The notes beneath the pieces were generated by a model. It did no database searches. It saw only the letters and a program-made list of their open reading frames with translations, and was not told where the DNA came from. Positions 1,564 through 5,966 of a stretch of DNA of 5,968 bases are shown one piece after another; positions within the stretch are counted from its first letter, which is position 1; each line of letters begins with the position of its first letter. The position numbers and the translations under genes were made by a program. Origin of the DNA: JBFLXN01 sp040755715 [NCBI: Candidatus Edwardsbacteria bacterium] (GTDB lineage Bacteria > Edwardsbacteria > AC1 > JBFLXN01). The DNA lies in the NCBI GenBank assembly GCA_040755715.1, contig JBFLXN010000164.1, forward strand, positions 1-5,968, written 5' to 3'.

Positions 1564-3066
1564 TTACTTGCTGATTTCAAGTTCTTTAATAAGTCGGGAG
1601 AGATAGGAGGACTGAATTTTTAAAGCTATTGCTGTCTGACGTTGATTCCAGTTATGAGCCATCAAAGTTTTGGTGAGATATTCTTTTTTGAAGTTTTTTT
1701 GAGCTTCCTCCCAGTCTAAGGTTGAGGAAAGGTGAAGATTGGTTTTTTCTTCCTTAGTAAAGGAAGGCAGGTGATTTATATTAATGGTTGGCCCTGATGC
1801 CAGAACCACAGCTCTTTCTATAACATTCTGCAGTTCACGAATATTGCCAGGCCAAGAGTAATCTTGAAACGCTCTTAAGACTTCGGGAGAGAATCCACTG
1901 ATATTTTTTTTGGTCTCCCGGGTAAAGCGCTCTAAAAAGTGCTGTGCCAGAATGGGAATATCCTCCTGCCGTTGCCGTAAAGGAGGAAGAAAGATTTGAA
2001 AGACATTCAGCCGGTAATAGAGGTCCTCCCGGAAGGTATTGTCTTTTACTAACTGTAAAAGGTCGTGATTGGTAGCGGCAATGATTCTGACATCTACTTT
2101 GATGGTCTCTATACCGCCCAGCCTTTCAAATTCTCGCTCTTGGAGAACTCTCAAAATTTTGGCCTGGACAGCCATAGGCAAGTCCCCAACTTCATCCAGA
2201 AAAATAGTCCCTTGATGAGCTAATTCAAAACGACCTTTTCTGCGATTAATAGCGCCGGTAAAAGCTCCTTTTTCATGGCCAAACAATTCTGATTCAAGCA
2301 ACTCCACCGGTATAGCCGCACAATTTACTGCTATAAAGGACTTTTCAGCCCTCGGACTTTTAGTATGGATGAATCTAGCTAAAAGTTCCTTGCCAGTGCC
2401 GTTTTCGCCTTGCACTAAAACCGTAGTATTTCCCCTGGCTACCTTTTGGGCAAGACCTAAAACATCCTGAATTGCTTGACTCTGACCGATAATAGTATAA
2501 CGACTGGCGATTTCATCCCGAAGTTGAATATTTTCATCTTGAAGCTTCTGATATTTATTAGCGTTTTCTAACACTTGAGCGGCTAGACCGGCAACTTTCA
2601 ACAAGAGTCCCTGGTCTCGCTCACCGAAAATTTCTCCTTCTTTCTTGTTGATAACCTCAATCACTCCGACTGTTTTGTCTCCCACTACCAGAGGAACACA
2701 GAGTAGAGACCTGGTGGTAAATTTGGTTCGTTCGTCAATACCCTTATACCACCTTTCATCTTTATTTACCTGGTTAACTATTTGGGGTTTCCTCTCCCGA
2801 GCCACCCAACCAGCGATTCCCTGACCCATTGGCACAGAAAGTCTTTTCAGCTCCTCTGACACCTGACCAGTAGTGTGAGCAAAATGCAGTCTTTGAGTCG
2901 TTTCATCCATCAGCAACAGTGAACTGGCTTCAGCCTGAGTAAGAGTTTTAGCCGCTTCTATGATAATATCTAACAGTTGGTGTTGGTCCAAAGTTGATGA
3001 TAGAGCCTGGCTGAAGGAAAAGAGAAATTCTAACTCTTGGTAATATTCATTTTTTGCTGACATCAT
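1564..3066 (-). CDS. GAF-domain sigma-54-dependent transcriptional activator
   Basis: This is an enhancer-binding protein of the NifA/FhlA type that uses ATP to open sigma-54 promoters. Counting from the GTG at 3069, an N-terminal GAF sensor domain covers about residues 20-170, followed by a short charged helical linker (170-190). The AAA+ domain (about 192-425) has Walker A GENGTGKE (221-228), the sigma-54-contacting GAFTGA loop (268-273), Walker B IFLDEVGD (289-296), sensor I AATN (331-334), the arginine-finger region FREDLYYRL (346-354) and the sensor II region WPGNIREL (406-413). A Fis-type helix-turn-helix ends the protein (about 460-501). There is no receiver domain with a phosphorylatable Asp, so the signal is probably a small ligand, a redox cue or a partner sensed by GAF. 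The start is uncertain: GTG 3069, ATG 3066 and ATG 3063 are consecutive, with no clear Shine-Dalgarno sequence. I chose the first ATG. The gene is monocistronic and divergent from gdhA. Confidence 0.93.
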   Translation of the reverse strand: MMSAKNEYYQELEFLFSFSQALSSTLDQHQLLDIIIEAAKTLTQAEASSLLLMDETTQRLHFAHTTGQVSEELKRLSVPMGQGIAGWVARERKPQIVNQVNKDERWYKGIDERTKFTTRSLLCVPLVVGDKTVGVIEVINKKEGEIFGERDQGLLLKVAGLAAQVLENANKYQKLQDENIQLRDEIASRYTIIGQSQAIQDVLGLAQKVARGNTTVLVQGENGTGKELLARFIHTKSPRAEKSFIAVNCAAIPVELLESELFGHEKGAFTGAINRRKGRFELAHQGTIFLDEVGDLPMAVQAKILRVLQEREFERLGGIETIKVDVRIIAATNHDLLQLVKDNTFREDLYYRLNVFQIFLPPLRQRQEDIPILAQHFLERFTRETKKNISGFSPEVLRAFQDYSWPGNIRELQNVIERAVVLASGPTININHLPSFTKEEKTNLHLSSTLDWEEAQKNFKKEYLTKTLMAHNWNQRQTAIALKIQSSYLSRLIKELEISK

Positions 3067-3069
3067 CAC

Positions 3070-3320: not shown

Positions 3321-4571
3321 ATGCAAAAACTTTCTATAGCTCAAATGGTGTGTCAGCAACTACAGAAGGCGGCACAAATAATGGATTTATCCCAATCACT
3401 CTTGAAGATTCTCCAATGTCCGAAGAGAGTGCTGAGAGTAACATTTCCGGTTCAAAAAGATGATGGCAGTATTACCTGCTTCACCGGATTCCGCTGTCAA
3501 TACAATGATGTGCGAGGACCAACTAAGGGCGGCGTAAGATACCATCCCGATGTTAGTGAGGATGAAGTCATTGCCTTGGCCGCCTGGATGACTTGGAAAT
3601 GTGCGTTGGTTGATTTGCCTTACGGCGGAGCTAAAGGCGGGGTCATCTATAATCCTTCGGAGTTTTCTGAAAAAGAATTGGAGCGCCTCACCAGACGCTA
3701 CACCACTGAAATTATGCCCGTCCTTGGTCCCGACAAAGATATTCCTGCCCCTGATGTCTTTACAACTTCAAAGACAATGGCCTGGATGATGGATACTTAC
3801 AGTATGTTTACCGGTCATACTGAACCGGCAATAGTCACTGGCAAACCCGAAGCCCTCGGCGGTTCTAAAGGCAGAAAAGAAGCCACTGGAAGGGGTGTGG
3901 CAATTGTCACTAGAGAACTCTTTAAAGTTCTCAATAAGTCACTGAATGGCGCTACTGTGGCGATTCAAGGCTTTGGAAATGTTGGTGGGTATGCCGCTCT
4001 ATTTCTTTCACAAATGGGAACAAAGATTGTAGCAGTATCTGATTCTTCCTCAGCATTTGTCAATTCTGAAGGTCTTAATGTTCCAGAATTAATGAACTGG
4101 GTAGAAGAGCACAAATGTCTAATAAAATACAAAGGGAAAAGTAAACAAATTGATAGAGAGGAATTGCTCTATCAGGATGTTGATGTCCTCATTCCGGCAG
4201 CTCTGGAGAATCAAATTCGTGTAGATAACGCAGAAAAGATTGAGGCAAAGATTATTTCTGAGGGAGCAAATGGACCAACTACTCCTGAAGCTGACGAGAT
4301 TTTGAAAAAGAAAAATGTCTACCTCATCCCTGATATTTTAGCCAACTCTGGAGGCGTGATTGTCAGCCATTTTGAATGGGTCCAGGCACTTTCTGGATTA
4401 TACTGGGAAGAGCAAGAAGTAAATGAACGTTTGGAAAAGAAATTAATTCACAGTTTTCAGACGGTCTGGCAATGTTCTTTAGAGAAGAAAGTATCTTTAC
4501 GAACTGCCGCCTATATTATCGCTCTGGAGAAAATTGCTGAGGTTTATCGCTACCGAGGATTGTTTCCGTAA
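3321..4571 (+). CDS. gdhA: Glutamate dehydrogenase
   Basis: This enzyme catalyses the reversible oxidative deamination of glutamate to 2-oxoglutarate and ammonium with NAD(P), in the cytoplasm, normally as a hexamer. At 416 residues it has the usual length of the short hexameric class. The N-terminal dimerisation and substrate domain (about 34-165) carries GPTKGGVRYHP (66-76) and CALVDLPYGGAKGG (94-107), with substrate lysines K69 and K93 and the catalytic lysine K105. The catalytic aspartate is in PAPDV (D145). The Rossmann domain (about 185-410) has GFGNVG (217-222), and the conserved PDILANSGGVIVSHFEW lies at 337-353. Cofactor preference cannot be read safely. The start is fixed by AAGGAGG five bases upstream and by a promoter. 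gdhA has its own transcript; the following nuoE has a separate promoter that shares an upstream element, which hints at co-regulation. All key residues seem intact. Confidence 0.96.
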   Translation: MQKLSIAQMVCQQLQKAAQIMDLSQSLLKILQCPKRVLRVTFPVQKDDGSITCFTGFRCQYNDVRGPTKGGVRYHPDVSEDEVIALAAWMTWKCALVDLPYGGAKGGVIYNPSEFSEKELERLTRRYTTEIMPVLGPDKDIPAPDVFTTSKTMAWMMDTYSMFTGHTEPAIVTGKPEALGGSKGRKEATGRGVAIVTRELFKVLNKSLNGATVAIQGFGNVGGYAALFLSQMGTKIVAVSDSSSAFVNSEGLNVPELMNWVEEHKCLIKYKGKSKQIDREELLYQDVDVLIPAALENQIRVDNAEKIEAKIISEGANGPTTPEADEILKKKNVYLIPDILANSGGVIVSHFEWVQALSGLYWEEQEVNERLEKKLIHSFQTVWQCSLEKKVSLRTAAYIIALEKIAEVYRYRGLFP

Positions 4572-4620: not shown

Positions 4621-4649
4621 GCAAGATTTTCCTGTGGCAAGATTTTCCT
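4621..4649 (+). promoter_or_regulatory. Tandem 13-mer operator candidate upstream of nuoE
   Basis: GCAAGATTTTCCT occurs perfectly at 4621-4633 and 4637-4649, a 16-base period. The second copy runs into the -35 box of the nuoE promoter. A near-identical element (one extra T and one extra C) overlaps the gdhA -35 box at 3220-3237. Tandem sites abutting -35 suggest a regulator; its identity is unknown. Confidence 0.5.
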
Positions 4650-4678
4650 TGACAATTTTTTTCTTTATCTATTATAAT
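4649..4678 (+). promoter_or_regulatory. Sigma-70-like promoter of nuoE and the DRTGG gene
   Basis: Consensus TTGACA (4649-4654) and consensus TATAAT (4673-4678) are separated by 18 bases. The start would be near 4685, giving a leader of about 43 bases with AAGGAG at 4716-4721. It is the strongest-looking promoter in the window. Confidence 0.75.
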
Positions 4679-4727: not shown

Positions 4728-5441
4728 ATGTTTAACAAAACCAAAATTGATGAAATCATTGAAAAGAACGGCGGCACCCAATCAGGATTGGTGGCAATGC
4801 TTCAAGATATTCAACAAGAATACAACTACATTCCCCAAGAAACCCTCGTCTATCTCTCAGAGAAGTTACATCTCCCCTTGATTCATCTCTATAGTTTAGC
4901 CACTTTTTATCGTGCGCTTAGATTAACAGAAACAGGACGGCACTTCATCAATGTCTGTCTGGGCACAGCTTGCCATGTCAGAGGGGCACCGAGAATCTTA
5001 GAAGAAATTCAGAGAAAATTAAATATTATGCCTGGTGAGACTACCAAAGATAAAATGTTCACCTTAGAGACCGTTAATTGTCTCGGAGCTTGTGCTCTCG
5101 GACCTATTGTCGTGGTTGATGGTGAATACTATGGTCAGGTCAGTCTGAGAAAGGTAGATACTATTCTAAAGAAATACGCAAAGGAAGAAAAACCGCCTGA
5201 GCAGCCACCACCCCAACAGCCTGAAGTTCCTCCATTGCCTCCAGAAAAACCTGCGGTTCCACTTCTTCCCATAGAAGAAATACCAAAGAAGCCCAAAGTA
5301 AAAAAGGAAAAACCTAAAGCAAAGAAACCTAAAAAGAAAGTAACAAAGAAAAAACCGAGAGTGAAGAAAGAAAAACCTAAGGCAAAGAAAGTCACAAAAA
5401 GACCAAGCCCAAAAAAGAAAAGACCAAAGAAGAGAAAGTAA
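4728..5441 (+). CDS. nuoE: NuoE-type [2Fe-2S] subunit with a Pro- and Lys-rich tail
   Basis: Residues 1-150 form a complete NuoE/HydC-type thioredoxin-like ferredoxin domain (the 24 kDa subunit of complex I and of NAD-linked hydrogenases). The four cluster ligands are present as C77-x4-C82 and C118-x3-C122, within CLGTAC and CLGAC. The domain passes electrons between a flavin subunit (NuoF/HydB) and other iron-sulfur centres. The family usually ends near residue 150-170. Here about 87 extra residues follow: a proline-rich linker (about 155-185), then a highly basic Lys/Pro tail (187-237) with almost no acidic residues, resembling histone H1 tails. The tail holds a 13-residue repeat, KPKVKKEKPKAKK at 188-200 and KPRVKKEKPKAKK at 209-221. 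AAGGAG six bases before the ATG supports the start. The gene precedes the DRTGG gene by 3 bases. No NuoF or hydrogenase gene follows in the window, so its partner is unseen. Confidence 0.93.
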   Translation: MFNKTKIDEIIEKNGGTQSGLVAMLQDIQQEYNYIPQETLVYLSEKLHLPLIHLYSLATFYRALRLTETGRHFINVCLGTACHVRGAPRILEEIQRKLNIMPGETTKDKMFTLETVNCLGACALGPIVVVDGEYYGQVSLRKVDTILKKYAKEEKPPEQPPPQQPEVPPLPPEKPAVPLLPIEEIPKKPKVKKEKPKAKKPKKKVTKKKPRVKKEKPKAKKVTKRPSPKKKRPKKRK

Positions 5442-5444
5442 AAT

Positions 5445-5801
5445 ATGCTTCTTAAAGAAATCTCCGAAATTCTAAAAGCAGAAGTCTTAGTCGGTGAAGA
5501 TTCCTTGAATGTGGAGATTTGCGCTGCCGAGGCTTCTGACCTGATGAGTGATGTCTTATCCTTCACCAAACCAGGTGTCATTCTTTTGACCGGGCTGGCA
5601 AATTCCCATACTATTCGCACTGCCGAACTGGCTGACCTGGCCGCAATAATCTTTGTCCGCGGCAAAAAACCTAATCGCGAGACGCTCAATTTGGCAAAAG
5701 CAAAAAGGATACCACTACTTTCTACTTATCATCATATGTTTGAAGCCTGTGGTTTGTTAGCCAAAAAAGGATTAAAAGGGACTAACGAGACAAGCGTCTA
5801 A
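5445..5801 (+). CDS. DRTGG-domain protein
   Basis: This 118-residue protein matches the small stand-alone DRTGG proteins: an N-terminal LKEISEILKAEVL segment, the conserved ASDLMSDVLSF (30-40), a PGVILLTGL strand (43-51), and a C-terminal PLLSTYHHMFEACGLL (90-105). It has no signal peptide or membrane segment. The biochemical role of the domain is not settled; it also occurs in phosphotransacetylase-like and CBS-containing proteins and is thought to be regulatory. Stand-alone members are often encoded beside NuoE-, NuoF- and [FeFe]-hydrogenase genes, which fits its place 3 bases after nuoE and implies co-transcription and translational coupling. No good Shine-Dalgarno sequence is seen beyond A/G-rich bases in the nuoE end, consistent with coupling. 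The operon seems to end here, because the next frame is on the other strand. Confidence 0.85.
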   Translation: MLLKEISEILKAEVLVGEDSLNVEICAAEASDLMSDVLSFTKPGVILLTGLANSHTIRTAELADLAAIIFVRGKKPNRETLNLAKAKRIPLLSTYHHMFEACGLLAKKGLKGTNETSV

Positions 5802-5873: not shown

Positions 5874-5966
5874 CTAATTTTTAAGTAATTCTTGAATTTT
5901 TTCTTTTGATTTTGAGTTGATTTCAAATAATAAATTTTTAATAATTTCAGATTTTTGTTCTTTCTC
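5874..5966 (-). CDS. C-terminal end of an unidentified convergent gene (partial)
   Basis: From the window edge the minus strand is open for 30 codons and ends with TAG at 5876-5874. The visible product, EKEQKSEIIKNLLFEINSK then SKEKIQELLKN, is highly charged and looks like amphipathic helix. No family can be named from it. The last 95 bases contain only 16 G or C by count, far fewer than gdhA or nuoE, and codons are almost all AAA, GAA, ATT and TTA. This hints at a horizontally acquired or rarely expressed gene, but an open stretch of this length can also arise by chance. Confidence 0.4.
   Translation of the reverse strand, partial: EKEQKSEIIKNLLFEINSKSKEKIQELLKN

What the first reader, a model, noticed from the sequence alone, without database searches (positions are those of the whole stretch)
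5190..5441. NuoE-type electron-transfer subunit with a histone H1-like tail
After a complete [2Fe-2S] domain the protein continues through a Pro-rich linker into about 50 strongly basic Lys/Pro residues with a 21-residue-period repeat. The two repeats differ at silent codon positions (for example AAA against AAG, and GTA against GTG) while the protein is nearly unchanged, which suggests selection on the peptide. Such a tail could tether the subunit to nucleic acid, an acidic membrane surface or an acidic partner. I know of no described role for this arrangement.
Basis: partly seen in the sequence, partly recalled or inferred. Interest (0 to 1): 0.6.

Follow-up and report, generated by a model that had tools for sequence, protein, structure and literature searches.

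The report
Electron-transfer subunit with lysine-rich tail
A bacterial iron-sulphur electron-transfer protein carries a floppy, very positively charged tail that its closest relatives lack, and similar tails turn up on a few distant relatives, so the tail looks like a repeatedly acquired sticky anchor whose target is unknown.

Summary
ORF 4728-5441 (+) is one intact 237-residue protein: a complete NuoE-type [2Fe-2S] domain (residues 7-150), a Pro-rich linker, then 52 residues (186-237) with net charge +30, predicted unstructured. The 21-residue repeat is weaker than described: a 14-residue core matching 13 of 14 (9 of 5000 shuffles as good), with 7 silent and 1 replacement codon differences. 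The nearest homologues found (58-62% identical) end within 6 residues of the domain, so the tail is not a family trait. Similar Lys-rich tails occur on NuoE-type proteins of five other genomes among 977 genome-searches (a lower bound), needing at least three changes on the domain tree. In one pair of relatives the tail drifts (61% against 84% identity in the domain) but keeps its charge density. Such tails are no genome-wide habit there (2 of 2522 sampled frames, both unidentified). Unexpectedly, the 2-oxoacid oxidoreductase beta subunit beside NuoE also ends Lys-rich in four genomes. No NuoF or hydrogenase gene lies in the window; the neighbour is a DRTGG gene. Most likely the tail is a disordered electrostatic tether; its target (DNA, RNA, polyphosphate or acidic partner) is unresolved. 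New variant of a known kind.

The parts
4649..4678 (+). Perfect-consensus sigma-70-like promoter, TTGACA-18-TATAAT, upstream of the NuoE gene; suggests the pair is its own transcription unit
   Evidence: 12 of 12 matches; a consensus match only
4728..5183 (+). NuoE-type thioredoxin-like [2Fe-2S] domain, residues 1-152, Cys 77/82/118/122
5184..5282 (+). Pro-rich linker, residues 153-185
   Evidence: translation; low confidence, no secondary structure in the model
5283..5438 (+). Lys/Pro-rich basic tail, residues 186-237, net charge +30; stop codon 5439-5441
   Evidence: no Pfam match
5286..5327 (+). Repeat core copy 1, KKPKVKKEKPKAKK
5349..5390 (+). Repeat core copy 2, KKPRVKKEKPKAKK, 21 residues downstream
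5445..5801 (+). DRTGG-domain protein, 118 aa, probably same operon
   Evidence: PF07085, 1.2e-08; homologues directly after NuoE in L095 and L098

Best explanation
The gene encodes a NuoE-type electron-transfer subunit to which a disordered polycationic tail has been added. The tail most likely works as an electrostatic tether that holds the subunit, and any complex it belongs to, on a polyanion (nucleoid DNA, RNA or polyphosphate), in the way proposed for the Lys/Pro/Ala-rich ends of AlgP and PhaF. Selection would act on charge and disorder, not on exact sequence. Shown: intact domain, in-frame tail, its charge, its recurrence on other NuoE proteins, and charge kept despite drift in one pair of those. 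Predicted: disorder. Inferred: that the protein works as an electron carrier, that the tail binds a polyanion, and which one.
For: Intact domain and frame. Model confidence falls from 79-93 per 10-residue block in residues 1-150 to 54-65 over residues 151-237, with no secondary structure after residue 152. 6 of 127 distinct closed NuoE frames examined pass one fixed test (last 50 aa: at least 9 Lys and net at least +9): window, G282, G206, G446, G463, G372 (the set was enriched for long frames). On the domain-only tree the six need 5 changes, at least 3 forced by starred branches. G282 against G206: domain 127 of 151 identical, tail 44 of 72 aligned with 23 gap columns, yet 38 basic/0 acidic in 95 and 29/1 in 72. 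Background in four of those genomes: 0 of 844 (G206), 0 of 1298 (G282), 0 of 268 (G463) and 2 of 112 (G446) frames pass. [quoted passage not shown]
Against: No direct evidence of any binding partner. The nearest homologues by the domain tree (L101, L105, L088) have only 3, 3 and 6 residues after the domain. The window's genome is not held, so the tail cannot be followed in its own relatives and the background was measured in other genomes. Lys-rich ends on the neighbouring oxidoreductase subunit fit an enzyme-specific role at least as well as a general polyanion tether. The tail is not made of KPAA repeats (translation).
Confidence: 0.4

Rival explanations
1. The tail is an electrostatic docking arm for acidic electron carriers or an acidic partner subunit: a positively charged, mobile arm on a ferredoxin-linked complex that captures ferredoxin and raises the encounter rate.
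For: PorB-like subunits (TPP_enzyme_C) of 2-oxoacid oxidoreductases beside NuoE also end Lys-rich: 4 of 16 distinct closed PorB frames have 35-52 residues past position 300 of the query (the first ten or so are ordinary PorB sequence), in G206, G282, G246 and G216. In G206 and G282 both subunits have such an end. The PorB ends were not selected for by the search. All five other tailed NuoE genes are followed by NuoF. That ferredoxins are acidic and that PorB hands electrons towards ferredoxin is recalled, not tested.
Against: The window has no Por, NuoF or ferredoxin gene among its ORFs of 60 aa or more. G206, G282 and G246 are one order, so the PorB cases are about two origins. Only 2 of the 4 PorB ends pass the fixed test, G206 and G216, and among the places listed from 198 genomes only the three genomes of that order align through the whole PorB end. 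G216's NuoE ends one residue after the domain while its PorB has the Lys-rich end.
Confidence: 0.25
2. The tail is near-neutral low-complexity sequence grown by replication slippage and local duplication at a free C-terminus, tolerated because the end of NuoE is exposed.
For: Purine-rich low-complexity DNA; nearest homologues lack it; sequence and length drift quickly in the G282/G206 pair; other NuoE proteins have short variable or acidic tails (for example L118).
Against: 7 silent against 1 replacement difference in the repeat core; charge density kept in the G282/G206 pair; no such ends among 2410 frames of G206, G282 and G463, and 2 unidentified ones of 112 in G446.
Confidence: 0.27
3. The tail anchors the subunit to an acidic membrane surface.
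For: Net charge +30 would suit anionic lipids.
Against: No hydrophobic anchor: 4 hydrophobic or aromatic residues of 52. No membrane partner gene is evident in the window.
Confidence: 0.05
4. Sequencing or assembly error, such as a frameshift or chimera, made the extension.
For: No genome is held for the window, so a second assembly could not be compared.
Against: The frame is continuous from the domain and its stop ends 3 nt before the next start codon; the other two forward frames hold 4 and 5 stops over the tail; similar tails in other genomes.
Confidence: 0.03

Closest known systems
NuoE / HydC family, thioredoxin-like [2Fe-2S] ferredoxin (PF01257); nearest solved chain HydC of an electron-bifurcating hydrogenase, 8a6t_C
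   Same: Whole domain, E 1.3e-46 in Pfam and 3.1e-42 against 8a6t_C; all four cluster cysteines
   Different: 81 further residues after residue 156; no NuoF or hydrogenase gene in the window
AlgP and PhaF C-terminal domains, KPAA-repeat H1-like ends of granule-associated proteins in Pseudomonas
   Same: Disordered Lys/Pro-rich C-terminal domain on an unrelated functional domain (PMC9239181, passages)
   Different: The window tail is shorter (52 against a 154-aa repeat region), poor in Ala, not KPAA repeats, and sits on a redox subunit
NuoE proteins with C-terminal extensions (NCBIfam NF009040 profile of 400 positions, NF005724 of 240; PDB chains 8qby_E of 239 and 8e9g_E of 245 aa)
   Same: Longer than the domain at the C-terminal side; these entries match the window protein
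   Different: The window protein scores far below both NCBIfam cut-offs (76.6 of 514 and 91.6 of 280 bits); I did not examine the composition of those extensions
NuoE-DRTGG-CBS/HATPase gene cluster (L098, L095)
   Same: DRTGG homologues 50-53% identical directly after NuoE
   Different: NuoE there has no tail; there a CBS-HATPase gene follows, not seen in the 167 nt left in the window

Membership tests
NuoE family (PF01257) | Full-length match to the thioredoxin-like [2Fe-2S] domain above cut-off | tested here: met
   158.5 bits against 24.8, profile positions 1-144 of 145
NuoE family (PF01257) | Four cluster cysteines in the family spacing | tested here: met
   C77, C82, C118, C122, invariant in the 9-row alignment A1
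NuoE family (PF01257) | NuoF partner gene next door (common, not required for the family) | tested here: not met
   None among the window's ORFs; tblastn of L106 NuoF finds nothing in the window at E 1e-20
NCBIfam NuoE / HoxE equivalogs | Score above curated cut-off | tested here: not met
   Best 138.2 of 224 (HoxE) and 131.6 of 141 (NuoE)
Histone H1 / H1-like proteins | Lys/Pro/Ala-rich disordered tail | tested here: inconclusive
   36% Lys, 26% Pro over residues 157-237 but only 4% Ala; low-confidence model, no secondary structure
Histone H1 / H1-like proteins | H1 or other DNA-binding family match | tested here: not met
   Tail alone matches no Pfam family at E up to 1; whole protein matches only PF01257
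AlgP/PhaF-type tail | Tandem KPAA repeats | tested here: not met
   No KPAA in the translation; repeat core is KKPKVKKEKPKAKK
AlgP/PhaF-type tail | Binding to DNA or granules | not testable with these tools
   Needs experiment

The most novel reading that the evidence does not exclude
Polycationic disordered tails have been gained repeatedly and specifically on subunits of ferredoxin-linked NAD-reducing complexes (NuoE, and PorB in the same operons), as a general electrostatic device that captures acidic electron carriers or gathers the enzymes into a condensate with a polyanion.
Probability: 0.2. Interest if true: 0.65.

Novelty: new variant of a known kind. Interest (0 to 1): 0.4.

Why it matters
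If the tail is functional it shows soluble redox complexes being given an address or a capture arm by repeated gain of a simple charged tail, a cheap evolutionary route to placing or speeding up electron transfer. It is directly testable by tail deletion. I found no paper on it: nine full-text searches of open-licence PMC papers gave no title or abstract start that describes a Lys-rich tail on NuoE. Six of the nine returned no paper at all, and subscription papers and preprints are not covered.

Tried and rejected
Frameshift or wrong frame: rejected. A known domain in the tail: none in Pfam at E up to 1; one weak PDB match to a Gag polyprotein at E 0.04, taken as compositional. The tail as query against plasmids: no match, but that tool filters low complexity, so this says little. 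Viral contigs for NuoE and for GDH: no relatives. Placing the window's organism: not achieved; the best glutamate dehydrogenase matches among 22 genomes were 57% over about half the protein (G001) and 51% over nearly the whole (G004), so the phylum is unknown. Defence-system match: none. A Fisher test of NuoE/PorB against background is set aside, because those genomes were chosen for their NuoE tails; only the PorB ends are free of that choice. Clustering of the tail label on the tree: 41 of 500 shuffles need as few changes as observed, mean 5.9 against 5, so the label is hardly clustered at all.

Selection to keep in mind: tails were sought in 977 genome-searches with the full-length query (116, 68, 198, 198, 199, 198 genomes; some genomes may be counted twice), and I examined only loci returned by the tools plus two picked sets of 20 regions chosen for long frames, alignments reaching into the tail, or close domains. 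One search did not list all its matches, and searches used E limits of 1e-38 or 1e-36. So 5 genomes is a lower bound, and 6 of 127 is no population frequency. Of 129 distinct domains, 2 open-ended ones (L018, L128) were left out of the tail count; 128 rows entered the tree, where these two, whose true ends are unseen, would count as 'no' (L128 and L018 are so labelled there).

Full report
What is there. The window holds, from left to right, a GAF-AAA sigma-54 activator (1564-3069, minus), a glutamate dehydrogenase (3321-4571), the NuoE-type gene (4728-5441), a DRTGG-domain gene (5445-5801) and, near the right edge, 30 codons and a stop on the minus strand that could be the end of a convergent gene (5874-5966). 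A perfect-consensus promoter-like site lies at 4649-4678, upstream of the NuoE gene. The NuoE and DRTGG genes are separated by 3 nt and are probably one two-gene unit.

The protein. The NuoE domain is complete (PF01257 at residues 7-150) with all four cluster cysteines. The best-scoring solved chain is HydC of an electron-bifurcating hydrogenase, 8a6t_C, E 3.1e-42. After the domain come a Pro-rich linker and a 52-residue basic end: 28 Lys, net +30, calculated pI 11.8. The AlphaFold model is confident for the domain and low for residues 151-237, with no secondary structure after residue 152 (an alignment of only 9 sequences). The tail alone matches no Pfam family.

The repeat. The best self-match of the basic region is at lag 21 and covers 14 residues with one K/R change; 9 of 5000 shuffles of the same residues score as high. 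Seven of 13 identical residues use different codons and six the same, as expected by random codon choice (5.9).

Relatives. The first scan of genome contigs gave 14 loci, none with a basic tail. The nearest domains on the tree are L101, L105 and L088 (58-62% identical), with 3, 3 and 6 residues after the domain. Searches with the full-length query in six phylum-level sets (977 genome-searches) gave five genomes whose NuoE has a Lys-rich end: G282 (95-residue tail, L106), G206 (72, L107), G463 (113, L108), G446 (69, L109) and G372 (31, L115, with 4 acidic residues, the weakest case). With the window that is 6 of 127 distinct closed NuoE frames, in a set enriched for long frames. On a tree of the domain alone (128 rows, 148 columns, 50 of 125 inner branches unresolved) the tail label needs 5 changes and at least 3 are forced by starred branches; the label is not clearly clustered (41 of 500 shuffles as low). 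Such tails therefore came or went several times; repeated gain is the simpler reading, as tails are rare.

Is it selected? Between G282 and G206, of one order, the domain is 127 of 151 identical while the tail is 44 of 72 with 23 gap columns, yet basic residues stay at 38 of 95 and 29 of 72 with 0 and 1 acidic. That is the pattern of constraint on charge and disorder. It is one pair, from another lineage than the window. Basic tails are not a habit of these genomes: with the same test, 0 of 844 (G206), 0 of 1298 (G282), 0 of 268 (G463) and 2 of 112 (G446) stop-to-stop frames of 100 or more residues pass; the two are frames of 111 and 108 residues that I did not identify. These frames include shadow frames, so the number of real genes is smaller; about 694 kb was sampled, a small part of each genome.

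An unlooked-for pattern. In G282, G206, G246 and G216 the gene before NuoE encodes a PorB-like beta subunit of a 2-oxoacid oxidoreductase (TPP_enzyme_C in the three I scanned, G282, G206 and G216). It too ends Lys-rich: 4 of 16 distinct closed PorB frames in the loci held have 35-52 residues past position 300, the first ten or so being ordinary PorB sequence; only 2 of the 4 (G206 and G216) pass the fixed test. In a survey of 198 genomes only the three genomes of one order (G206, G282, G246) align through the whole of that end among the places listed. G216 has the Lys-rich end on PorB and not on NuoE. This hints that the complex, not one subunit, is what gains the tail, and is the basis of the docking-arm rival and of the novel case. 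It rests on about two origins. The window has no Por gene, so it does not bear on the window directly.

Gene context. DRTGG homologues 50-53% identical sit directly after tail-less NuoE genes in G470 and G405 (L095, L098), and are followed by a gene with CBS and HATPase domains. In that order 3 of 8 genomes have a close DRTGG homologue; in the third, G456, it lies on another contig than the NuoE match. The window's pair is thus part of an arrangement seen elsewhere, with the third gene missing from the stretch seen. In contrast NuoF follows NuoE in all five other tailed loci (L106, L107, L108, L109, L115), so the window differs from them in context.

Mechanism. The best-supported reading is a disordered electrostatic tether on a working electron-transfer subunit. 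AlgP offers a bacterial precedent: a KPAA-rich end similar in make-up to the tail of histone H1, needed for normal spacing of polyphosphate granules, and KPAA peptides bind DNA in vitro (PMC9239181; passages read). Which polyanion, or whether an acidic protein partner instead, is not decided. A neutral, slippage-grown tail remains a serious rival for the window itself because its nearest relatives lack it and its own genus could not be examined.

Verdict. Described pieces combined in an uncommon way: a new variant of a known kind.

Noticed in passing
L106 4183-5331 (-), L107 2044-3054 (+), L128 401-1672 (-), L092 1989-3068 (-): PorB-like subunits beside NuoE also end Lys-rich (35-52 residues past position 300); in L092 the neighbouring NuoE has no tail.
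   Followed up: partly
window 5135-5689 (-): A 184-residue open frame antisense to the tail, Phe/Leu/Gly-rich; most likely a shadow of the Lys and Pro codons.
   Followed up: no
window 5874-5966 (-): 30 codons and a stop, running off the window edge, that could be the C-terminal end of a convergent gene; would close the NuoE-DRTGG unit at two genes.
   Followed up: partly
L118 and L072 (G189), L075 (G156): Some NuoE proteins have short acidic tails instead (L118: 12 Asp/Glu and no Lys/Arg in 19 residues), so the free C-terminus varies in charge both ways.
   Followed up: no
L108 3574-5243 (-): In G463 the basic-tailed NuoE is preceded by a SpoIIE phosphatase gene and a PAS-domain gene.
   Followed up: partly
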